A DNA stretch of 64,000 nt from Paludibacteraceae bacterium (lineage in GTDB: Bacteria > Bacteroidota > Bacteroidia > Bacteroidales > Paludibacteraceae): contig JAILLP010000036.1 of the NCBI GenBank assembly GCA_024693065.1, forward strand, positions 62,001-126,000, in the 5' to 3' direction. The translations under genes were made by a program, and so were the position numbers. The first letter of the stretch is position 1. Every line of letters begins with the position of its first letter. Of this stretch, positions 17,323 through 57,753 are shown in pieces. The notes under the pieces were generated by a model that was not told where the DNA came from, ran no database searches, and was given only the letters and a program-made list of their open reading frames with translations.

Positions 17323-20300
17323 ATGAAAAGATTTTTTAGACTCACGGCATTAGTTCTTTTCCCGTTATGGTGTGTGCTAAACAGCACATACGCAGAGCCA
17401 TTCAACTCTATCATCACGGGACAAAACGTTTCCATGACAGAGCCAAATGACGAGACCAATTTGCTCACCACCGGGGCAATAATCGACACGTCAAAGACGT
17501 ATCAGCTCAAATACGAATTGGCCCTGGATGTCAATCAGATCAACCTTGGAGAATACTACGAATTGGAGTTGCCTGACATCATCATGGCGTTAGAAAATTC
17601 CAACCAGAACGCGGTATACATTCTCGGAGAAAACAGCAAGACGGTAGTGGGTGATATAGATAACAACGTCAACTCCTCCAGCGCCTCCATCGCGATCAAC
17701 AGCATGCTGAATGATAACGACACGGTACACGTCATTTTGGACAACCTCAAATTCGTTGCGCCGGAAAATTATTCCGGAGGAACTCTCACCCTTAATTTCT
17801 TGTTCGGGGAAAGCAGTTCATCCAGTTTCGACGTGAAGTTGGTAGGCAAACCTCAATTGACGGGCGTCAGCGTCGAAAACGCTTATCCAGTATACGATAG
17901 TTGGGCGCACACCATAAACGTCTCCACCGAGGGCGATGCTTCCGGCTGCACATTGAGCTATGCGGAGGGCGACGGCGAGTTCAACTTAACCGAAAAGCCT
18001 TCATACATCAATGCCGGAGAATACATAATTAGAGTTAAAGCCTCCCAAAAAGGCTTTGCGGACACTATCATCGACGGTATCGTTCACATCGGGAAAAGAG
18101 AAGCCACAGTCTCCGCCAACCCAGTCGTGACACACGAAGGACAAAATCCTATAGAACTAACTTACCTCACAACAGGCGAAGTGCCGGGTGAGACATTGAA
18201 TGGTATCACCATCAGTCGCACACCGGGAGACTCCGCTGGCGTATACAACATCAACATAAGAATAGAAGGGGAAGACCCGAACCCGAACTACGCCGTGACC
18301 ACCATGGATGCGACCTACACCATCACGGCGCACCGATTCGACACGACAGTCGTTGAGATTTCCCAACCGACCTGCACACATACAGGCGCACATAAGTTCC
18401 AGTACAAATGTTCGATCTGTGAATACACCACCTACTCTGAGGAGATTACAGACGCTATGCTTCCTCACACTTGGGGCAGAGACACGACCACAATCACGGA
18501 GCCTAAATGCGAGGAGAAAGGTGTTCAATCCATCAAATGTCTACAATGTGACGCAACCAAAACGGACTCCATCGACGCACTCGGACATGACTTCAATCCA
18601 ATCCCGACCATTGACGTAGAGGCGACATGCAGCATGGAGGGAAGTCAATCCAAGCACTGTAGACGAGTAGGTTGTGAAGCGAAGACTGACATTGAAAGCA
18701 TCGTGAAAAAACCTCACACTTGGGGAAGAGACACCACTACGATCCTTGCGCCAACCTGCATCGCAGGAGGTAAAGACTCCATCTCTTGCCTATTATGCGA
18801 CGCATTCAAAATCGAAAACATCGAGGCTTTAGGACATAATTTCGAGGACACCTTCACTGTCGACGTGCAACCGAAATGCATCGAAGAGGGAAGCAAGTCC
18901 AAACACTGCACCCGTTGCGAAGTGAAAAGCGAGATAACCTCCATTCCTGCCATCGGACACGAATTCTCCGAAGAATACACAATTGACCTAGAACCGAACT
19001 GCATAGAAAATGGATTTAAGTCAAGACACTGTATCCATGAGGGTTGCACTGTCAGCATAGACACAGTGGAACTCGAAGCGAACGGCGGACACGTCTGGGA
19101 AATAGACTCTGTCCTTGTTGAAGCAACTTGTACGGAGGATGGCCTCGTAAACCGCAGATGCACCAAGTGCGGAACCATAAGAAAAAACGTAACGGTGCAG
19201 AAGTTAGGCCACAACTTCGACGTGGAATTCACAATCGATATCCCTGCGACATGCAAAACCAAAGGAGAACAATCCAAACATTGTACACGTTGCGATGCAA
19301 GGAAAGCGATCGAGGAGATTGAAGCATTGGGGCACACTTGGGACGAAGGAACTACTACCTTGGCCCCTACTTGCACGGAGAAAGGATTAACCACCTACTC
19401 CTGCGTGAGAGGCGACACCACAAAAATGGACACCATAGCCGCCTTGGGTCATGATTTCTCTGAAGAATTCACCATCGACGAGCCAAACACATGTACGGAA
19501 AACGGAGAGAAATCCCGCCACTGTTCAAGATGTACAGAGCGCACTGAAATCACCGTCATCGAGGCGCCAGGCCACAACTGGAGCGACACAACCATATCCA
19601 TCCAGCCTCAGTGTACCACGAAAGGAGAAAAAACCATCACATGCGGGGTATGCCACACGACGAAGAAGGAGGAAATAGATTCCCTCGGACACTCGTTCAG
19701 CGACAATTTCACCATCGACCTTGAACCAACGTGCGAAAACAAGGGTTCTAAATCCAAGCACTGCGTTCACGACGGTTGCACCGCCACCATCGACGTGACT
19801 GAAATCGCACCAATCGGGCACAAGATGGAGATGGACACCATACAGATAGAGCCATCATGCACAAAAACAGGACAGGCACAATACAAATGTACGATGTGTG
19901 GCGAAATTGAGACGAGAGTAATTATGGCCCTCGGACATGAATTTGCGGACACATTCACTATAGATAGAATTCCAACTTGCTTGACCGAAGGACTCAAATC
20001 CAAACATTGCATCAGATGTGTGGAGAAGATCGAGATCACCACACTTCCAAAAGGCGAACACCAATTGAAGGCCTTTGAAGTGATAAAAGAAGCCACCTGC
20101 ACAGAAGGCGGAATGACAAAGTTCAAATGCGAAGTGTGTGGCACTGTCATCGACAGCACCATCAACAAATTGGGGCATGATTGGGAGAACGACTACACCA
20201 TCGATTTGGCGCCTACCTGCACAATGGGAGGAAGCAAGTCTAAACACTGTTCTCGCTGCAACGCCAAAACAGGGGCAACCTTCATTCCTAGTCCAGGACA

Positions 20301-47594: not shown

Positions 47595-47620
47595 ATGTGA
47601 ACATTAAAAACAACAGAGTT

Positions 47621-50215
47621 ATGAACTTTAAGAATTATACGATCAAAAGTCAGGAGGCGATACAAGAGGCTGTGAACTACGCCAACAAGCGTAACCAGCA
47701 GGTTATCGAGCCTGTCCACCTGCTGAAGGGTATCCTGAAAGTGGGCGAGAACGTCACGAAGTTCGTATTCAACAAACTGAACGTAAACACCGAACAACTC
47801 AATGAGGTCGTCATCAAGATGATCTTGCGTCTACCTAAGGTAACGGGGAGCAACGAAGACACCTATTTGAGCAACAGTGCGAACGCAGTGTTGAAGAAGG
47901 CGGAGGAGATGTCGAAGGAAGAGGGTGACCAGTTTGTCTCCCTGGAATATATCTTGCTTGCACTGATCGCGGTGGATAGTCCTACGGCAGCCTTGCTGAA
48001 GGACGCGGGCTTGAACTACCAAGCCATGAAGGATGCCATCGCCGAACTGAGACAAGGGAAGAAGGTGACGGACGAGTCTGCCGAGCAGACCTACGACGCT
48101 CTCAACAACTATGCGATCAACCTCAACGAGCGGGCGCAAGCCGGTAAGCTGGACCCTGTCATCGGAAGGGATGATGAGATCCGTAGGGTGCTACAAATCC
48201 TTAGCCGTAGGACAAAGAACAACCCTATCCTCATCGGTGAGCCTGGTACGGGTAAGACCGCCATCGCGGAGGGCTTGGCGCAACGAATCATGCGTGGCGA
48301 CGTGCCAGAGAACCTGAAGACCAAGAAGATCTACTCCTTGGACATGGGTGCCGTCATCGCAGGTGCGAAGTACAAAGGAGAATTCGAGGAGCGACTCAAA
48401 TCGGTCATCAACGAGGTGATCAAATCGGACGGAGAGATCATCCTCTTCATCGATGAGATCCACACCTTGGTAGGCGCAGGCAAGAGCGACGGCGCCATGG
48501 ATGCCGCCAACATCCTGAAACCAGCCCTCGCCAGAGGTGAGCTGAGAGCCATCGGTGCGACTACCCTCGACGAGTACCAGAAATATTTCGAGAAGGATAA
48601 AGCCTTGGAGCGTAGGTTCCAAATCGTCATGGTCAACGAGCCGGACGAGGCGACCACCATCTCCATCCTGCGTGGATTGAAGGAGCGTTACGAGAACCAC
48701 CACAAGGTGCGTATCAAGGATAACGCTATCATCGCGGCCACAAGGCTTTCCAACCGATACATCACGGACCGTTTCTTGCCAGACAAGGCCATCGACCTGA
48801 TCGATGAGGCGGCCGCTAAGCTAAGGCTGGAGATAGACTCCGTACCGGAGGAGTTGGATAACAAGGCACGTGAGATCAAGCAATTGGAGATCGAGCGTGA
48901 GGCCATCAAGCGGGAAGACGACAAGACTAAACTCAATAAGTTGGAGAAGGAGATCGCCAACCTGAAGGAGCAGATGCAGGACATCGGCGCCAAATGGACG
49001 GCTGAGAAAGAGCAGATCAACATCATCCAACAGAGCAAAATAGAGATCGAGCAACTGCGCTTCGAGGCTGAGAAGGCGGAGCGTGAAGGCAACTACGGAC
49101 GTGTGGCGGAGATCCGCTACGGAAAGGTGAAAGAGGCGGAGAACCGTATCGCCGAGGCACAGAAGAAGCTGGCCGACATCCAATGCGCCGATCCGCTCGT
49201 CAAGGAGGAGGTGGACGAGGAAGATATCGCCGAGGTAGTCTCCAAATGGACGGGCATCCCTGTCACCAAGATGATGCAGACCGAAAAGGATAAGTTGATG
49301 AACCTCGAGGAGGAACTCCACAAACGTATCGTCGGTCAGGACGAGGCCATCAGAGCGGTCTCCGATGCCGTGAGACGAAGCAGGGCGGGTCTGCAAGACC
49401 CTAAGAAGCCTATCGGCTCATTCATCTTCCTGGGCACGACAGGTGTGGGTAAGACCGAGCTGGCGAAGGCTTTGGCGGAACTGCTGTTCGACGACGAGAA
49501 TATGATGACCCGTATAGACATGTCCGAGTACCAAGAGAAGATATCCTCCACCCGACTCATCGGTTCACCTCCGGGATACGTCGGCTACGAGGAGGGTGGA
49601 CAACTGACCGAGGCCATCCGTCGTAAACCATACTCGGTGGTCTTGTTCGATGAGATCGAGAAGGCGCACCCGGATGTCTTCAACACACTGCTTCAGGTGC
49701 TGGACGACGGACGATTGACCGACAACAAAGGCAGGGTCGTCAACTTCAAGAACACGATCATCATCATGACCTCCAACCTCGGTTCTTCCCTCATCGCGGA
49801 GAAGTTCGAGAACATCACGGACGAGAACCGTGAGAAAACATTGGCGGAGGCGAAAGAAGACGTGTTGGGTCTGTTGAAGGAGACCATCCGTCCTGAGTTC
49901 CTGAACCGTATCGACGAGATCATCATGTTCTCCCCTCTTTCGAAGGATGACACCAAGGCGATTGTCGACATGCAGATCGCCAGTCTCCATAAGATGTTGA
50001 AGGAGAGCGATGTGGAGCTGAACGTGACGGAAGACGCGAGGGCATTGATCGCCCAAGAGGGTTACGACCCTCAGTTCGGCGCAAGGCCTATCAAGAGGAC
50101 CATTCAAAGGTTGTTGTTGAATGAGCTCTCCAAGGCGCTCATCTCCCAATCGGTGAACCGTGACAAACCGATCGTGGTGGACAGGGACGGAGACAAGCTG
50201 AAGTTCACCAACTAA
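47621..50215 (+). CDS. clpB: ATP-dependent disaggregase ClpB
   Basis: ClpB is a hexameric AAA+ chaperone that pulls proteins out of aggregates together with DnaK. The 864-residue protein has the N domain (1-145), AAA-1 with GEPGTGKT (Lys212), the long ClpB-specific coiled-coil M domain (about 390-520), and AAA-2 with GTTGVGKTE (Lys611). The pore loops [11 protein letters not shown] and GYVGYEEGG are present. No ClpP-binding loop is present. An in-frame GTG at 47597 is less likely than the ATG at 47621. A strong terminator follows and marks the left border of the AT-rich island. Confidence 0.97.
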
Positions 50216-50280
50216 CCTGCGGGCAAAGCTTCTAACCGCAAGAGTTTATGATTCAATAAGCGATATGCTTACCCGATATG

Positions 50281-50327
50281 AGGGTGCAAGCATAGTTCAT
50301 ACAGAACGTGCCTGCACCCTTTTTTTG
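50281..50327 (+). terminator. clpB terminator
   Basis: AGGGTGCA (50281-50288) pairs perfectly with TGCACCCT (50313-50320) and is followed by seven T. Confidence 0.85.
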
Positions 50328-50402
50328 AATATAATCAATCAACACTTGAAATTCTCTCTCTTTAAAGAAAAAAGGCATAAACAGAAATATTAATAAAAAA
50401 AA

Positions 50403-53400
50403 ATGAAAGATATATTGCGTAATTTTTTAGAAATCAACGATCAATCTTCTGGATTAATGTTATTGCCATTAACAACTGGTTCTGGCAAGACTCACCATGT
50501 CCTTGAATATATTGCCGATTTGCTTTTACGCAACCGAGAACAGAAGGTGTTTTTCATTACAACTCAAAAGAAGAATCTTCCCGTTGATAAATTGCGAAGA
50601 ATGTACAAAGGTGATGATTTTGACGAAAGAGTTTTAAGGATTCAGTCAGTAATGGATTGTATAAAAGAAAACCTGACTGACAATTTGGTTAAAGAGATTA
50701 AATTGGAACAACAAACTCTTGCTAGTTCCTCTAAACTCAATATGTTAGTTGCTGTTCGCAAGGAAATACTACGTATTGGTGATGAAAACATAGAAACTGG
50801 TCGTGTCGCAGAACGCGAATTCCGTAATGAGTTGTTATATTTTTTAACAAAAGAATGCAAGAAAGATGAACTACTAGAAAAAATAAAAAAAGATAAAGCG
50901 TGGCATTGGGTTGGCAAATTATATCCGATGGTTTACACATCAGAGCGGCAAGTATATTTTATGAGTATGGACAAATTCATGCTGCCATATAATACTCTTG
51001 TAGACCCCACAGAAAAACTTATCGATAGCAAGTGGTTTAAAGGTGCATATGTTTTCATCGACGAATTCGATGCAACAAAAGAAACTATTCTCAACAGAAT
51101 CATCGGTGATAAAAACAACAAAATCAATCTGATAAGTTTAGCGAAAAAAATCACACAAGGATTAAATTATACCGATTTTCCAACTATCTATACAGGGACA
51201 CCATACAATACAAATACAATTGATAATAATTTGAAAAATTTCAATCAATTAAGCGAAGACTATTGTTTAAAATACGTGTTCAAGACATCAAATGAAATTA
51301 AATCTACAGATAGTTTTTTATTTCATGATAATGGATATTGGGGACTAACTACAGAAAAGAATCTAATAGTGGAAACTGACCCCAAGAAAAAACAGAACAT
51401 TATTAATGATAAATCAGAAGATAACAACAATAAAACATATACACTTTATGAACTTTTGTCTAAAATACAAAGTAAACTGACGTATTTCCAGAATGGAGTT
51501 TCATATATCGCCAAAGACTATATTAGCAAAAAAGGTGTGAACCTTAAAACCGCCGTTGATTCTTTTCTGAACTTATTTCTTGACAATCCATATAGCGACT
51601 ACATTTCTACTCAGGTGATGTCGATTTTACGGGCAGAGAATGATAAGAAAAGTGAGATTTCTAAAATGGATAAATTCGATACATCATTCTATAAAAATGG
51701 ATTTCGCTATACACGACTGGAGAATGACGAATTTAGCAATGCGGAACAATCAGAAGTAACTTTATACTCCTATAATGAAACACCTGAATCTGTGATGGAG
51801 AAAATGGCTAAAGTTGCAAAGATTGTTGGTATATCGGCGACGGCCACACTTAAAACCGTTTTAGGAAACTACGATATTGATTATTTGCAACGCAAGTTGC
51901 TTGATAAATACTATGTCTTGTCGGAAAGAGAACAAAAGCAATTGAAAGATTTCCTTGACAAATCAAGGAAGGATTATCATAAAACTAATATCAATGTTAA
52001 AATCAATAAAATTTCAGAAAAAGAATATGCCGATGATGCATGGTTGGACATTGTTCCAGAAACAGATGCACAAGAAATAACAGAAGCATTAAATAACAGT
52101 TATGGCACTGACAATTATAAAAAATATAGATTTTACAAAATATCGTGGGCATTCAAACAATTCTATTCGCACGATGATATTAAGTCTTTCTTGTGTTTTA
52201 TGAATTTACACCCCAAAAAAGGAAATGATTTGGATAGTGAAATATTATCATTAATTTTTGATAGAATAACAGGAGAAAAAGGTGGAGCTAAGAATTTTGT
52301 AGAATATTTAAATAATGAAGGAGATGGTTATGACAATAATCTAAAGAGAATAACAGATCGATTAAGCCAAGGAGAAAAATTATTTGTGATATCTGTTTAC
52401 AAAACCTTAGGTACTGGACAGAACCCGCAATATATAATCCCCAAAGATATCGAAGTGGAGAAAATAAATGACCTATACGAGGATAATAAGAAAGATTTTG
52501 ATGCAATCTATTTGGACAAACCTACACATATAATCAGCAATTTATATGATACTTCACAGTTGAAATGGAATGATAATGATTTCTTGAAGTTTGTTTTTGA
52601 AATGGAGTATTTGTGTCAGAACGGAGATATAAGTGAGACTCAAAAAAGAGAACTGATAAATATTGGCTCTAGAAAGTTGTGTGGCATACCATGCACAAGA
52701 AAAAAAGAAATGAACTTTGAAAGTATGCAACCATACAAAGGATTAGCAACACAAGTGATAAATCAAGGTTGTGGGCGTATTTGTCGTACCAATAAGAAGA
52801 ACAAGAACATATACATTTTTGCAGACAAAGATATTTCAAATGTAATTGATCCTTTGGTAAGAACGGCAATTCCGTTGAGTCCTGAATTTGAAAAACTACT
52901 TTATGAATTAGAGAAAAGTGGCATTCAGCCTTCCGCACCAACATTATATGAAGATAAGGCTAAAAAAATCGAAACAGACACATCACGAACAATTAGTAAT
53001 TATTTAAGTTGGGAAGATAAGTGGACAGCTAACAAAATAGATGATTGGAAACAAATGCGATCGTACGTATTAAAATTACCAGCTCCAAACGAGCAAGAAT
53101 TCAAAACTTTTCCACTTTATGACAGGTATATTGAATTGCCAGAAGAACAATCTGCATATTGGTATGACCAGTCAGAGGACTACTGGAAAATTAATGCAAT
53201 TAGTTTTAAAAAGAAATTATCTCAAGAAGTATCCGAAGATGATTGCCAGTTGAAAACGCTAATGAAAATTCCAGGTATCAAAGAAATGTTTGTGAGGAAA
53301 GGCTATGCTACATCATGGAAACCAAGCAAATATTTGATGTCACCATCTTTATATAGTCGAATATATAAGGGAGCATTGGGCGAAGTTGTAGGAAAACAAA

Positions 53401-53765
53401 TCTTTAAAGACACAATAGGTGTTGAATTGGTTGACATAGAAGATAGTTCGGTCTATGAATTCTTTGATTATCAAGTACCAAGTAAAAACATTTATGTGGA
53501 TTTTAAAAAATGGAAAGAAATTAATCTAGGCCTAGAGCAATCAGAAAAAATACGCTCAGAGATTTTTGCTAAAGCAAAAAAATGCGGAGCAGAAAAGGTG
53601 TTAATTGTTAATATTTATTCGACAACCGAACGCCAATGTAAACCACCATTACAAAGAGAAGAGTGTTCATTAATAGAAATACCACAACTCTATGTGGAAG
53701 ATGGAAAACAGGTTAAGCTTTCTATTGATTCAATAAATGTTATTAATAAGTACTTATGGAAATAA
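50403..53765 (+). CDS. DdmD-like helicase with C-terminal PD-(D/E)XK nuclease
   Basis: A 1120-residue cytoplasmic protein. The N-terminal half carries SF2-type helicase motifs: Walker A PLTTGSGKT (Lys29), Walker B VFIDEFD (220-223), motif III SATAT (478-482) and the arginine motif NQGCGRICR (787-795). Near the C terminus GALGE (Glu994), Asp1022 and Asp1033-Phe-Lys1035 fit a PD-(D/E)XK nuclease site. Length, domain order and the overlapping downstream gene match DdmD of the Vibrio cholerae DdmDE plasmid-elimination pair (about 1190 residues). DdmD identity is inference from architecture; another helicase-nuclease defence protein is possible. The gene is much richer in A+T than its neighbours. 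No clear TAnnTTTG box was found in the 75 bases upstream. Confidence 0.66.
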   Translation: MKDILRNFLEINDQSSGLMLLPLTTGSGKTHHVLEYIADLLLRNREQKVFFITTQKKNLPVDKLRRMYKGDDFDERVLRIQSVMDCIKENLTDNLVKEIKLEQQTLASSSKLNMLVAVRKEILRIGDENIETGRVAEREFRNELLYFLTKECKKDELLEKIKKDKAWHWVGKLYPMVYTSERQVYFMSMDKFMLPYNTLVDPTEKLIDSKWFKGAYVFIDEFDATKETILNRIIGDKNNKINLISLAKKITQGLNYTDFPTIYTGTPYNTNTIDNNLKNFNQLSEDYCLKYVFKTSNEIKSTDSFLFHDNGYWGLTTEKNLIVETDPKKKQNIINDKSEDNNNKTYTLYELLSKIQSKLTYFQNGVSYIAKDYISKKGVNLKTAVDSFLNLFLDNPYSDYISTQVMSILRAENDKKSEISKMDKFDTSFYKNGFRYTRLENDEFSNAEQSEVTLYSYNETPESVMEKMAKVAKIVGISATATLKTVLGNYDIDYLQRKLLDKYYVLSEREQKQLKDFLDKSRKDYHKTNINVKINKISEKEYADDAWLDIVPETDAQEITEALNNSYGTDNYKKYRFYKISWAFKQFYSHDDIKSFLCFMNLHPKKGNDLDSEILSLIFDRITGEKGGAKNFVEYLNNEGDGYDNNLKRITDRLSQGEKLFVISVYKTLGTGQNPQYIIPKDIEVEKINDLYEDNKKDFDAIYLDKPTHIISNLYDTSQLKWNDNDFLKFVFEMEYLCQNGDISETQKRELINIGSRKLCGIPCTRKKEMNFESMQPYKGLATQVINQGCGRICRTNKKNKNIYIFADKDISNVIDPLVRTAIPLSPEFEKLLYELEKSGIQPSAPTLYEDKAKKIETDTSRTISNYLSWEDKWTANKIDDWKQMRSYVLKLPAPNEQEFKTFPLYDRYIELPEEQSAYWYDQSEDYWKINAISFKKKLSQEVSEDDCQLKTLMKIPGIKEMFVRKGYATSWKPSKYLMSPSLYSRIYKGALGEVVGKQIFKDTIGVELVDIEDSSVYEFFDYQVPSKNIYVDFKKWKEINLGLEQSEKIRSEIFAKAKKCGAEKVLIVNIYSTTERQCKPPLQREECSLIEIPQLYVEDGKQVKLSIDSINVINKYLWK

Positions 53766-55564
53766 AGACTAATCGAATTGTATACGAATTAGATGCTGTA
53801 CAAATGGCCTCGATATATGATGTTTATTCGTTGAAAACGACAGATGATCGGTTTCCATCAGGAGCGAAGATGATTGACGAATTGTCGGCCAACAAATGCA
53901 TTATATCAACAGTGTATGTTTCGATAAAAGAATATTTGCTAATGCTGAAGAAAGGTATGGAAAGCAAGCATGATTTATTGGAAAATATTCACAAACTGAA
54001 AGATGGTGACAAGATCACCCTAACTGATTACTTGTCGGGGAAAACCAATGATTATTACTTGTTGCAACTTCTTTTGAATGCAATTGGCACACGTCAGACT
54101 AAGTTTGAATCGTATAATAATGTCACAGGACATTTGTATTGCTTCCATCCCAATTGGATAAAACGAATCAAATCGGAAATCATCAGTATTCCTACCATGG
54201 ACATTCGTTTGACATCGGGTATATTAACTTGGAATATTTGCACGTTCAACACATTGAAATATAAAAACGCAATGGATTTTGGCAAGCGGAAAATATCGGA
54301 GTTCCCGCGATACACAATTTCTGCCAATTATTCATTACGTCGCAAACTCAAAGACGACGAAAAGCAGGATGAATTTATTCAGCGTAAGATATTCGATAAA
54401 AAGACAAGCAAAACGTTTCTCGACATTTCTAATGAAAATGCTTTTGACGAAAGTAAGATGGGAATCATTGCAAAAGTGATTTCGCAATTCAACGAGAAAT
54501 ATAATGGACTTGCTAAATTAGACTTTGAACCACAAGAAATAGAGTCATCCATAGAATATTCGAGTAATAGAGAAAAAAATTTGCTGAGCAAAAGACTCAC
54601 TGATTTGCTATCAAAACAAAAAGTTGTTTTAGTCGATTTAGTAGAGAATGAGAAGTCGGCAATTCAATGCGAACAAATAACATCTGTATTCAAGTCAAAT
54701 TTTGGAATATCCGTAAGAAAAACCAAAAGATTGTCGAAGGGTGCATATAATTTACGGTTGATACACAACGATGAATATTATGGCAAAAACATTGCTGACC
54801 CACACGATGAAGACCTGTCAAAATATACCGTTCAGCACATAACGACGGACAATTTTAATGACAAAGGTTCTGACACGTATCTTCGAGCAGTCGCTTTCAA
54901 TGTTGCTGAAGAATTAATCATTAAAGATGATTTAAGAAATAAAACAATCTCTATTGTCAATTGGTCTGAATTTCAATTCGATAACAATTTGATATTTGGC
55001 ATAGAGCACGATATACAAACTGAAAATGGAGGAAAAAACAGACAATTCTATTTTATGACCATAAAACCCAACGGTCAATTTGAGATACGACAACAAGAGA
55101 ATGATTTGTTCTCATCTGATGAATACCATAAATATTTGAAAATCTTCACATCCTGTGAGAAAGAGACTATAAAAGGCATTGTTAAATATGGAGCCGATAT
55201 CAATGTTATCCATGAGACTGGATTACATACCGTTCCAGACATATTGGGGTTAAAAGAAGAATTGGCAAAAGGCAATAACAAACTAAAAAATAAAGAAGCA
55301 CGCAACAACTATTTGTCAGCATTACTTGACGTGAAAACATTTAAAAAAGACAATCAATTGCACTATTTTGTTGGAGAGATGGGGGTTGGAATAAATAGCA
55401 CTTTATCAGGCGTCCCTATTCGTCGAATAGAATCGTATGAGGGATCATCGCTATTCTTCGACAAACTTTTACCTCTTATGGGTGTGACATTTGTTCGTAA
55501 CGGGCAATTAACTGTTGTTCCTTTCCCATTTAAATATTTGAGGGAATATATCAAGTATTACTAG
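53756..55564 (+). CDS. DdmE-like (prokaryotic Argonaute-like) protein
   Basis: A 602-residue protein overlapping the helicase gene by 10 bases, so the two are translationally coupled. No motif is strong. The C-terminal half has the order expected of MID-PIWI: a MID-like block around GAYNLRLIHNDEYYG and ADPHDEDLSKYTVQHIT, a core strand NLIFGIEHDIQ, INVIHETGLHTVPD, and a C terminus YFVGEMGVGI ... VPFPFKYLREYI resembling the end of Argonautes. I cannot place the DEDX catalytic tetrad, which fits the catalytically inactive DdmE (about 690 residues), a DNA-guided protein that recruits DdmD. The N-terminal 270 residues would be the N/L1 region. It could instead be an unrelated partner; the assignment rests largely on context. 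Confidence 0.52.
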   Translation: MEIKTNRIVYELDAVQMASIYDVYSLKTTDDRFPSGAKMIDELSANKCIISTVYVSIKEYLLMLKKGMESKHDLLENIHKLKDGDKITLTDYLSGKTNDYYLLQLLLNAIGTRQTKFESYNNVTGHLYCFHPNWIKRIKSEIISIPTMDIRLTSGILTWNICTFNTLKYKNAMDFGKRKISEFPRYTISANYSLRRKLKDDEKQDEFIQRKIFDKKTSKTFLDISNENAFDESKMGIIAKVISQFNEKYNGLAKLDFEPQEIESSIEYSSNREKNLLSKRLTDLLSKQKVVLVDLVENEKSAIQCEQITSVFKSNFGISVRKTKRLSKGAYNLRLIHNDEYYGKNIADPHDEDLSKYTVQHITTDNFNDKGSDTYLRAVAFNVAEELIIKDDLRNKTISIVNWSEFQFDNNLIFGIEHDIQTENGGKNRQFYFMTIKPNGQFEIRQQENDLFSSDEYHKYLKIFTSCEKETIKGIVKYGADINVIHETGLHTVPDILGLKEELAKGNNKLKNKEARNNYLSALLDVKTFKKDNQLHYFVGEMGVGINSTLSGVPIRRIESYEGSSLFFDKLLPLMGVTFVRNGQLTVVPFPFKYLREYIKYY

Positions 55565-55606
55565 TGCCCCGTTAAAATCGGGACGAGTTAATTAAGGACC
55601 AACCGC

Positions 55607-55651
55607 ACTTGGACCCTCATACGCAATGTATGAATCCAAGTACGTTTTTTT
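55607..55651 (+). terminator. terminator of the DdmDE-like operon
   Basis: Two-part stem: ACTTGGA (55607-55613) with TCCAAGT (55635-55641), and inside it TCATAC (55617-55622) with GTATGA (55628-55633), followed by seven T. It closes the island 30 bases before the convergent AAA+ gene's stop. Confidence 0.85.
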
Positions 55652-55681
55652 ATATCTAGGGCTCTCTGACCGCATAGTAGA

Positions 55682-57712
55682 TCAGAACCCTACCCTATTC
55701 CTGCCGGTCGTCAGTTTCTCGCTGAACTCCTTCTCCGATTTGGCGGCGAAGAAATCCTCCTGGCATAGAACAACCTCCTTCAGCCCATTGAGCTGCGCCC
55801 GCATCGCCGCCTTGGACCATGTGCGCTCATAAAGGTTACGCACGAACCTGGCGTTCGAGAACTCCTCCGAACTGATGTAGCTTTGCGGCAACTCGTCGAA
55901 GTACTGCTCCACGGCAGGCTTCAGCTCCTTCTGGCAGGCGAAATGCTTCTCCGCCATCAGCATGAATATTTGGGCAAGTTGCTCCTTCGTGTAGGAAGGA
56001 AACTCGACCAGGAAAGGCATACGGCTCCGAAGCCCGGCGTTTCCCTGCATCAGCTTCTCCATCTCCGCCTTATACCCGGCCATGATGACCACAAGGTTGT
56101 CACGATGGTTCTCCATCTCCGAGATGAGCGTGGTGAGAGCCTCCCTACCATAATCGTTTTCAGACCCCACGCCTCCCCTGTAGAGGTCATAGGCCTCGTC
56201 GATGAAGAGGACCGAGCCATAGGCGTCACGACAGATCGCCGCGGTCTTAGGGGCAGTCTGACCGATATATTCCCCGCAGAAATCACGGGCACCATACTCG
56301 AAGAAATAACCATTGCTAAGCAGCTTATGCTCGGCGAATATCCGTCCGATGATACGCGCCACCGTCGTCTTACCTGTACCCGGCGCACCCACGAAACGCA
56401 TGTGCATACAAGGTCGGTCCAGCTTATCATTCTTCGCGGAGACCTCCACCTGCGCCACGATTTCACGGATACGTTCGGTGATCTTCTCCATGCCTATCAT
56501 TTCGGACAACTCGTCGAAGGCATCCTTCCCCTGGACGCCGTATGTGACCGAAAGGGGCTTAATCTCCTCACAACGTATGGTGTCGTCGGAAGCGCCACGG
56601 TTCCGGGCATCCGCCTGATGTTTGAGCAATACCGTCTCATCGAAGACCTTCTTGACGGTGCGCAGGCCGTAGAAGCGTCCGTCACTCTTCTCCTCCCTGA
56701 TCCGGGAAAAGAAAACCTCCCAAGCCTCCTCCTCCATCTCAAGGCGTAGCGGGTCGAGCATACGCTCCGCATACTGCCGGATCTCCTTGTCCGAGAAAGG
56801 CGGGATGGTGAATGTCTTGATGAAAAGGATATCGGAAAGCGAATCCTCTATTTTCTTGAGCTCATGAGGCTCTATGTAAGGGACACGGAAGACGAAATTG
56901 AAGTTGCCGGAGACGTGCGAAATCTCCAGAAGTAGGTCTTTCAGCTCACGCTGCTTGGATTTGACCATGAACTCGCTGATGTCCAGACAGACAAGCTTGT
57001 CATAATTCTCCTTGTCGTAAAGGATGTTCAACAAGTCTTTGACGTTGATCTTCCGTCCCTGCGTCTCATCGGAGAGCACGAACTCGAAATAGAACTTCTT
57101 GGTGAAAACGCCCAACTCCACCTCGAAAAGGGTGAGCAGGTTGATGACCCGCGTCAGGCCGCATCCGTCATTGACCGAGAAGAGATAATTCTGCGCCTTG
57201 AAACTGTCCAACGAGTCCCTTTTATGCATATCGGCGACGACAGGCACCGCCTCGTTGACGAACTGCTTGAAGGAGTCCCAGCCGATGAGGTTGTTGATGT
57301 TTTTAATGATATCGTCCAGCTCCTCCTTGTTGCTGAAGACGCTATAATCCACCTCGTCATTCTCCTCCTGCGGTTGTTCCCCTTCGTTCTTCAGGGAAAC
57401 ATGGACAGAAGATTTCTCCCCGAGTTTATAGTTTATCCGCTCCTCATCTCCGCTCTCGTGAATCATCGCGATGTGGGGGCATACCTGCTCCATTTTCTTC
57501 ACGATGGTATCAGCGGTCTCCTGCAAGTTCTTTTCCGTCCGCACCTTGCAACAGATCAGTTGAGGTCCGCTCAGCACCGTCGTCACGCAGCTTTCTCCGA
57601 AACAAGACTCTATGAGGCAAGGGATCAATGAACCATTCAATTCGGGATCATGGTCAAACAATCCATCCTTGACTTCTCCAATATCAAATATTACTTCATA
57701 CGTGCAATTCAT
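55682..57712 (-). CDS. AAA+ ATPase, CbbX/SpoVK type, with degenerate first AAA domain
   Basis: A 676-residue protein. The C-terminal AAA+ domain (about 405-676) is of the CbbX/SpoVK/EccA group, with FVGAPGTGKTTVARI, SVLFIDEAYDLYRGG and a sensor/arginine region GNAGLRSRMPF. The middle (about 140-390) looks like a second, inactive AAA domain: LFSVNDGCGLTRVIN replaces a Walker A. The N-terminal 130 residues are acidic and unrecognised. Such proteins remodel partner complexes in several systems, but the partner here is unknown. It is GC-rich like the core genome and convergent with the AT-rich island. The ATG at 57712 suits the -7 box; a TTG at 57745 would sit at the start site. Confidence 0.8.
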   Translation of the reverse strand: MNCTYEVIFDIGEVKDGLFDHDPELNGSLIPCLIESCFGESCVTTVLSGPQLICCKVRTEKNLQETADTIVKKMEQVCPHIAMIHESGDEERINYKLGEKSSVHVSLKNEGEQPQEENDEVDYSVFSNKEELDDIIKNINNLIGWDSFKQFVNEAVPVVADMHKRDSLDSFKAQNYLFSVNDGCGLTRVINLLTLFEVELGVFTKKFYFEFVLSDETQGRKINVKDLLNILYDKENYDKLVCLDISEFMVKSKQRELKDLLLEISHVSGNFNFVFRVPYIEPHELKKIEDSLSDILFIKTFTIPPFSDKEIRQYAERMLDPLRLEMEEEAWEVFFSRIREEKSDGRFYGLRTVKKVFDETVLLKHQADARNRGASDDTIRCEEIKPLSVTYGVQGKDAFDELSEMIGMEKITERIREIVAQVEVSAKNDKLDRPCMHMRFVGAPGTGKTTVARIIGRIFAEHKLLSNGYFFEYGARDFCGEYIGQTAPKTAAICRDAYGSVLFIDEAYDLYRGGVGSENDYGREALTTLISEMENHRDNLVVIMAGYKAEMEKLMQGNAGLRSRMPFLVEFPSYTKEQLAQIFMLMAEKHFACQKELKPAVEQYFDELPQSYISSEEFSNARFVRNLYERTWSKAAMRAQLNGLKEVVLCQEDFFAAKSEKEFSEKLTTGRNRVGF

Positions 57713-57753
57713 CTTCTTCGTTCTGTTTAGACAATCGTTCGGCAATAATCACC

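What the first reader, a model, noticed from the sequence alone, without database searches (positions are those of the whole stretch)
50403..55564. DdmDE-like helicase-nuclease plus Argonaute-like pair in a Bacteroidales genome
Two overlapping genes encode a 1120-residue helicase (Lys29, DEFD 220-223, SATAT 478-482, QGCGRICR) with a C-terminal PD-(D/E)XK-like site (Glu994, Asp1022, Asp1033-x-Lys1035) and a 602-residue protein with an Argonaute-like C-terminal half. In Vibrio cholerae, DdmD (helicase-nuclease) and DdmE (inactive DNA-guided Argonaute) eliminate plasmids. The same gene order, sizes and domain order here suggest a divergent Bacteroidota member of that defence family, or a sister system with the same logic.
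Basis: partly seen in the sequence, partly recalled or inferred. Interest (0 to 1): 0.9.

Follow-up and report, generated by a model that had tools for sequence, protein, structure and literature searches.

The report
Compact DdmDE anti-plasmid system cassette
Two overlapping genes encode a helicase-nuclease and a shortened, guide-binding Argonaute relative that very probably find and destroy plasmids, a distant and trimmed-down version of the DdmDE system known from cholera bacteria and lactobacilli.

Summary
The 1120-aa protein is a DdmD (PADLOC DdmD 3.5e-46; 21 best PDB fold matches all DdmD). The 602-aa protein is a full-length DdmE (six best fold matches all DdmE; profile 1.2e-67 and about 8e-44 to the solved DdmEs). 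Helicase and nuclease residues are invariant in 69 DdmDs; DdmE shows no conserved slicer tetrad. It is a DdmDE family member; plasmid elimination is inferred. New: the window's DdmE is a compact form without a PIWI-half insert that both solved DdmEs carry; the state is sharply bimodal (32 compact, 37 long rows) and changed apparently several times (fewest 4 on the E tree, 3 on the D tree). The cassette moved recently: 4 differences in 5.4 kb against 1.9% and 3.2% in the flanks of another species. The genome has a second compact pair 81 kb away. Two DdmD clades lack DdmE in their assemblies. Verdict: real, a new variant of a known kind.

The parts
50403..53765 (+). ddmD-like gene, 1120 aa: SF2 helicase (Walker A 25-30, DEFD 220-223, SAT 478-480, motif VI 788-795) with C-terminal PD-(D/E)XK nuclease (E994, D1022, D1033, K1035)
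53756..55564 (+). ddmE-like gene, 602 aa, compact form: Argonaute-like protein without the insert that the characterised DdmEs have in the PIWI half; starts 10 nt before the end of ddmD
55235..55330 (+). DdmE residues 494-525, the place where long DdmEs carry the insert (32 aa here; 113 in L. casei, 101 in V. cholerae DdmE between the same anchors)
50221..55644 (.). stretch almost identical (4 differences) to the same cassette in another species of the genus (G010), between flanks that differ by 1.9% and 3.2%; in relatives without it the clpB-side flank is shared up to 50339 (50329-50330 in G005 and G011), and in three of them (G009, G015, G001) the other flank resumes at 55676
47597..50215 (+). 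clpB-type AAA+ chaperone gene (name by eye, no family search), the left border; DNA matches in all 16 genomes of the genus searched. A GGGTGCA...TGCACCC hairpin with a T run follows at 50282-50326, read by eye
55682..57745 (-). CbbX/SpoVK-like AAA+ ATPase gene, the right border, opposite strand; also in relatives without the cassette, so not part of the system

Best explanation
It is a DdmDE plasmid-elimination operon of a compact-DdmE type. Shown here: homology and fold of both proteins, intact helicase and nuclease residues, a DdmE without a recognisable slicer tetrad, operon structure, D and E travelling together, and recent lateral spread of the cassette. Inferred from V. cholerae and L. 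casei DdmDE: DdmE binds short single-stranded DNA guides (residues Q360, E386 and K390, which I take to lie in the MID region, are kept in both solved DdmEs), pairs with a complementary plasmid site without cutting, and recruits DdmD out of its autoinhibited dimer; DdmD loads on the displaced strand, runs 5' to 3' and cuts it with the PD-(D/E)XK domain, so that the plasmid is lost. Purely inferred: that the trimmed PIWI half does not abolish DdmD recruitment, because the compact state persists in several lineages beside DdmDs with intact active sites.
For: PADLOC DdmD 3.5e-46; PDB sequence hits to DdmD 7e-45 and to L. casei DdmE 3.3e-9; profile searches; structure matches; invariant active sites in 69 DdmDs; of 80 loci brought in by DdmD, 65 carry a DdmE in the same stretch; all 8 of 393 genomes of the window's order with a strong DdmD (E below 1e-70) have an adjacent DdmE; D and E trees, read side by side, share their main clades; in residues 403-602 of DdmE only E597 is acidic in 80% or more of 61 rows; MID residues; cassette transfer. 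Mechanism of the known systems: PMC12409362, passages seen.
Against: No experiment. Identity to the characterised proteins is 15-20% over the structural alignments. PADLOC's DdmE model does not reach the window protein and matches 19 of 61 family members. The window DdmE lacks a region that both characterised DdmEs have; if that region carries the DdmD contact, recruitment must differ. Absence of the slicer tetrad was judged from conservation, not from superposed coordinates. Seven of seven tested DdmDs without a neighbouring DdmE have none elsewhere in their assemblies, so DdmD does not always need a DdmE, or these are decaying or incomplete. Guide type cannot be read from sequence.
Confidence: 0.82

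Rival explanations
1. Same machinery, different main target: the compact DdmDE acts chiefly against phages or conjugative elements and not against small plasmids.
For: Target choice is set by guide capture, which sequence does not show. The cassette sits in a chromosomal site with changing cargo, and relatives lie on plasmids themselves (Nostoc, Lactobacillus intestinalis, Persicobacter, Cetobacterium), so some carriers may use it against competitors.
Against: The two tested systems of the superfamily whose description I saw act on plasmids: DdmDE (PMC12409362, passages) and E. coli ApsAB, for which no effect on eight phages is reported (PMC11096173, passage).
Confidence: 0.15
2. It is an ApsAB-type system (E. 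coli ST38), the other branch of the same helicase-nuclease superfamily.
For: Same two-protein logic. Profiles of the window family do touch enterobacterial pairs of the wider superfamily (D 72-105 bits, E 21-23 bits), and those proteins also have a VQHI/CQHI stretch like the window's VQHI.
Against: The same profiles score V. cholerae and L. casei DdmD 410 and 541 bits and DdmE 153 and 232 bits. ApsB is reported to lack a PIWI RNase H fold and to have Y-x3-K...QG...K (section 11 of PMC11096173); the window protein matches Argonautes over its PIWI half by fold and has QH, not QG, at 360. ApsA/ApsB of ST38 themselves were not fetched.
Confidence: 0.03
3. A decayed or non-functional copy: the shortened DdmE is a deletion that killed the system.
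For: The PIWI-half insert is missing.
Against: 32 of 69 rows are compact and 29 of these fall into three well-supported compact sets of 22, 3 and 4 rows. Both reading frames and all D active-site residues are intact. The cassette moved between species recently. A second compact pair, 36% identical in E, is intact in the same genome.
Confidence: 0.03

Closest known systems
Lactobacillus casei DdmDE (PDB 9iw3, 9ix4, 9ixm)
   Same: Two-protein system and domain order, fold over nearly the full length of both proteins (E 3.5e-35 and 6.7e-56), residues Q, E, K of the MID region, C-terminal VR.GQ.TVVP.P.KYLREY motif, helicase motifs in the printed part of the alignment.
   Different: 16-20% identity in the structural alignments; DdmE 602 against 715 aa, with 32 against 113 residues between the same anchors in the PIWI half.
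Vibrio cholerae DdmDE (PDB 8u0j, 8u3k, 9ezx, 9ezy, 9bgk)
   Same: As above; E, D and D-x-K of the nuclease and motif VI align residue by residue.
   Different: 15-20% identity; DdmE chains of 677-690 aa with 101 residues between the anchors; V. cholerae DdmDE is on the VPI-2 island (PMC12409362), here a chromosomal site behind clpB.
E. coli ApsAB (PMC11096173)
   Same: Helicase/PD-(D/E)XK nuclease plus Argonaute-like protein; reported to eliminate plasmids; ApsA reported to belong to one continuum with DdmD (section 11).
   Different: ApsA is longer (active-site K1435) and ApsB is reported without a PIWI fold; enterobacterial relatives score 21-23 bits with the window's DdmE profile. ST38 ApsAB itself was not compared.

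Membership tests
DdmDE | DdmD: SF2 helicase with intact ATPase motifs | tested here: met
   K29, DEFD, S478-A479, Q788/G791/R792/R795 invariant in 69 DdmDs, T480 in 90% or more; DEFD was part of a search pattern, but D, E and the last D hold in seven DdmDs found without it
DdmDE | DdmD: C-terminal PD-(D/E)XK nuclease | tested here: met
   E994, D1022, D1033, K1035 invariant and aligned with V. cholerae DdmD; fold match over the chain
DdmDE | Partner with long-pAgo fold related to DdmE | tested here: met
   Foldseek top 6 all DdmE, TMq 0.60-0.80; profile E 1.2e-67 and about 8e-44
DdmDE | DdmE catalytically inactive (no DEDX tetrad) | tested here: inconclusive
   No conserved tetrad: one column (E597) acidic in 80% or more of 61 rows in residues 403-602. 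Not checked on superposed coordinates
DdmDE | Two-gene operon, D before E | tested here: met
   10-nt overlap; DdmE in 65 of 80 loci, 7 of the other 15 ending at a contig end
DdmDE | PIWI-half insert as in both solved DdmEs (a shared feature, not a criterion that I saw published) | tested here: not met
   32 residues between anchors against 101 and 113
DdmDE | DNA-guided targeting, release of DdmD from an autoinhibited dimer, plasmid elimination | not testable with these tools
   needs biochemistry and plasmid-loss assays
ApsAB | ApsB MID-like motif Y-x3-K...QG...K | tested here: not met
   window DdmE has QH at 360, no QG, and Y-x3-K only at 54 and 92; motif as given in PMC11096173
ApsAB | Sequence similarity to ApsA/ApsB | tested here: inconclusive
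   Only enterobacterial pairs of the superfamily (L101, L146, L147) were compared, with low scores; ST38 ApsAB itself was not fetched

The most novel reading that the evidence does not exclude
Compact DdmDE is a mechanistically distinct subtype: without the PIWI-half insert, apparently dropped (or gained by others) more than once, it uses another way to hand the target over to DdmD, or a different guide or target; and it is one point on a scale that ends in solo DdmD clades whose helicase-nuclease is intact but which have no DdmE in their assemblies and must be aimed by something else.
Probability: 0.22. Interest if true: 0.7.

Novelty: new variant of a known kind. Interest (0 to 1): 0.48.

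Why it matters
The DdmE chains in the PDB copy searched come from two species, V. cholerae and L. casei, both long forms. The family found here spans Bacteroidota, Bacillota, Fibrobacterota, Spirochaetota, Cyanobacteriota and methanogens and is poorly annotated: 0 of 61 DdmEs match Pfam and 19 of 61 match PADLOC's DdmE model at E 0.001. A natural, apparently repeated change of one PIWI-half module in a guide-binding protein is a ready-made test of what that module does in DdmD recruitment, and DdmD clades without DdmE ask how such a helicase-nuclease can be aimed. If active, the compact pair would also bear on why plasmids fail to establish in some of these bacteria.

Tried and rejected
Rejected: transglutaminase match of the 602-aa protein (E 0.012-0.036 over about 40 residues), taken as chance. 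Rejected: a third conserved component; clustering 763 neighbour ORFs within 6 kb of the D/E genes gave no family in more than 8 loci, and the largest clusters look by eye like ABC transporters, signalling proteins, a DNA-binding ATPase family and integrases. Rejected: a length change in DdmD that tracks compact against long DdmE; the best 20-residue stretch separates the groups at 88%, against 100% for the DdmE insert itself. Promoter and terminator scans were at chance level, and the repeat scan showed nothing I could use. Led nowhere: viral contigs with the DdmE (6 pattern hits, no relative; one scan of the eight allowed), phage records (no match), VIA-align library (not on the machine).

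Results that cut against an easy story: the PADLOC DdmD model found only the window's own genome among 395 of the phylum. With the A5 profile 48 of 393 genomes of the order pass E 0.001, but 40 of these match only within the first 140 profile positions (E 6e-6 to 1e-3); I count 8. With A4, 10 of 393 pass, among them G507 (DdmE with stops in one piece and no DdmD hit) and G663 (18 residues). The long rows of the trees (Cetobacterium, Persicobacter, V. cholerae, L. casei, L. intestinalis, G004) are unsafely placed; starred branches of the E tree alone force only one change of the insert state, the D tree needs 3, and gain cannot be told from loss. L086 (82) and L035 (90) are the shortest long rows. 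Some 500-base stretches of the flanks of the cassette differ from G010 by only 4 bases, though none matches the cassette's 4 in 5,424.

Papers: PMC12409362, PMC12904381, PMC12259885 and PMC12205087, passages found by term; PMC11096173, passages and the whole of section 11; its supplementary tree data, which lists the taxa of DdmD-like proteins, was not seen. All others: search listings only. Four primary DdmDE papers are not held, so what the PIWI insert touches in the known complexes could not be looked up.
Full report
Observation. All quoted motifs are at the quoted residues. In an alignment of 69 DdmDs, window included, the Walker lysine K29, DEFD 220-223, S478-A479, Q788/G791/R792/R795 and E994, D1022, D1033 and K1035 are invariant. 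One of the two patterns that collected the relatives spans IDEFD, so that motif's invariance is partly built in; seven DdmDs picked without it also share it, save the third letter, and the nuclease residues.

What the 1120-aa protein is. PADLOC's DdmD model matches at 3.5e-46, and all six PDB sequences found at E up to 1 are DdmD (7e-45 to 1.3e-44). A profile of the 69 finds L. casei DdmD at 5.5e-161 and V. cholerae DdmD at 1.8e-121, nearly end to end. The AlphaFold2 model (pLDDT 87.2, pTM 0.87) has DdmD chains as its 21 best PDB matches (E down to 6.7e-56; TMq 0.74-0.79 for the first 20), followed by DinG and XPD, which are 5'-3' SF2 helicases (direction recalled).

What the 602-aa protein is. 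Pfam, NCBIfam and PADLOC give nothing meaningful, but phmmer finds L. casei DdmE (3.3e-9) and V. cholerae DdmE (1.7e-4). A 61-member profile finds them at 1.2e-67 and about 8e-44. The model (pLDDT 88.3, pTM 0.85) matches the six DdmE chains first (best E 3.5e-35, TMq 0.80) and then human PIWI and Ago2, other Argonautes and TtAgo. The C-terminal motif FVRNGQLTVVPFPFKYLREY is largely shared with L. casei DdmE, and Q360, E386 and K390 are kept in both solved DdmEs. In residues 403-602 only E597 is acidic in 80% or more of the 61 rows, so there is no sign of a slicer tetrad; this was not checked on coordinates.

Relatives. Of these 80, 65 have a DdmE in the stretch, 7 of the other 15 stop at a contig end, and 8 have a DdmD but no DdmE in the flank. 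Some of the 65 DdmEs are broken or cut (L029, L048, L064, L088, L090). Within the window's order (unnamed by the tool) 8 of 393 sampled genomes have a strong DdmD (E below 1e-70), and all 8 have an adjacent DdmE; G507 has a DdmE piece without a DdmD hit and G663 an 18-residue match. So it is rare and patchy, as defence genes often are. Plasmid records hold pairs in Nostoc, Lactobacillus intestinalis, Persicobacter and Cetobacterium; the Cetobacterium partner was not reached by the DdmE profile and rests on position and weak similarity.

Compact DdmE. Between the anchors that correspond to window residues 494 and 525, 32 of 69 rows have 27-38 residues and 37 have 82-126; nothing lies between. 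L. casei DdmE has 113 and V. cholerae DdmE 101 (letters as printed). In the tree made without these columns the label needs at least four changes; the window belongs to a 22-row compact clade (support 100/97) of Bacteroidota, Fibrobacterota and Bacillota. Starred branches alone force one change only, long branches are unsafely placed, the DdmD tree needs three, and gain cannot be told from loss. Read side by side, the D and E trees show the same main clades, so D and E travel together. No length feature of DdmD follows the DdmE type closely (best 88%).

The cassette and its site. Against the other species found to have it (G010), 50221-55644 shows 4 differences, while 49001-50220 shows 23 and 55645-56999 shows 43 (alignment gaps counted as differences). 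In relatives without this cassette (G009, G015, G001, G005, G011) the clpB flank is shared up to 50339, or 50329-50330 in G005 and G011; the AAA-ATPase gene is shared again from 55676 in G009, G015 and G001, while in G005 that gene lies on another contig and only a 65-base piece (55592-55655) matches near clpB. Between the borders in G009 lie a WG-repeat protein and a Fic-like protein (names by eye) and in G001 other genes. The cassette is thus a recently moved insert in a variable site.

A second pair. The same contig carries another compact DdmDE (1122 and 605 aa) about 81 kb away on the opposite strand, 31% (D) and 36% (E) identical to the first, present also in G009 at 99% DNA identity. 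It falls in a different subclade in both trees. A further species of the genus, G004, has a more distant pair (1250 and 666 aa).

DdmD without DdmE. Seven of the eight solo cases (L091 left out because part of its DdmD is masked) were searched genome-wide with the DdmE profile: 0 of 7 genomes have one, against 2 of 2 control genomes. Two of the sets form fully supported clades (L061/L070/L077 and L055/L056); L100 and L026 stand alone among DdmDs that have DdmE. Their helicase and nuclease residues are intact: all seven are in the alignment. By their titles all seven are MAGs, of unstated completeness, so a missing contig could explain single cases, less easily whole clades.

How it most likely works. 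By analogy with the known systems (PMC12409362, passages seen): DdmE binds a ssDNA guide, finds the plasmid, does not cut, and recruits DdmD, whose autoinhibited dimer falls apart; DdmD translocates 5' to 3' on the non-target strand and cuts it. Homology, active sites, operon and spread are shown here; guide type, recruitment and plasmid loss are inferred.

Against the nearest alternative. ApsAB of E. coli is the other described branch of the superfamily (PMC11096173, section 11). Enterobacterial pairs of the wider superfamily (L101, L146, L147; not shown to be ST38 ApsAB) score 72-105 bits (D) and 21-23 bits (E) with the window's profiles, against 410-541 and 153-232 bits for the solved DdmDs and DdmEs.

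Verdict. The kind is known; the compact DdmE and its recurrence, the recent cassette transfer, the double carriage and the solo DdmD clades are what is new to me here. No paper on a short DdmE, or on DdmDE in Bacteroidales, stood out in the listings; the two papers that hold both 'DdmDE' and 'Bacteroid' were seen as listings only, the taxon data behind the ApsA/DdmD tree of PMC11096173 was not seen, and the primary structural papers and most subscription journals are not in that library.

Noticed in passing
G000:C32:26465-31643 (locus L017 12465-17643), outside the window: A second compact DdmDE pair, 31% (D) and 36% (E) identical to the first, in the same genome about 81 kb away on the opposite strand; also in G009 at 99% DNA identity.
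   Followed up: yes
L055, L056, L061, L070, L077, L100, L026 (and L091, partly masked): DdmD genes with intact active sites but no DdmE in the neighbourhood or (0 of 7 tested) in the whole assembly; two of the sets are well-supported clades.
   Followed up: partly
L017 17657-19578; similar proteins in L030, L059, L095, L097: An HNH_4 endonuclease next to a methyltransferase-HIT fusion beside the second DdmDE; bases 17807-19506 are absent at this place from the otherwise 99% identical G009 copy, and proteins similar to the HNH protein lie within 6 kb of DdmDE in four further loci (only the L017 proteins were run against Pfam). Looks like a separate mobile defence module.
   Followed up: partly
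L077 12618-12983 (-) and L055 8484-8849 (-): Similar-looking 121-aa proteins without a Pfam match lie beside solo DdmD genes of two different clades.
   Followed up: no
L013, L014, L015, L016: DdmDE-like pairs carried by plasmids of Nostoc, Lactobacillus intestinalis, Persicobacter and Cetobacterium, an anti-plasmid system on plasmids.
   Followed up: partly
L048 12452-17094: A ddmE gene split by an insertion whose 517-aa ORF clusters with the annotated IstA transposase of L016.
   Followed up: no
L146, L147, L101: Helicase-nuclease plus 816-823-aa Argonaute-like pairs, called hypothetical proteins in E. coli and unannotated in the Proteus record; 26 of 5426 E. coli genomes match the Proteus DdmD-like gene by DNA, 25 of them at 60-80% identity and only in part. 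Their place between ApsAB and DdmDE is unclear.
   Followed up: partly
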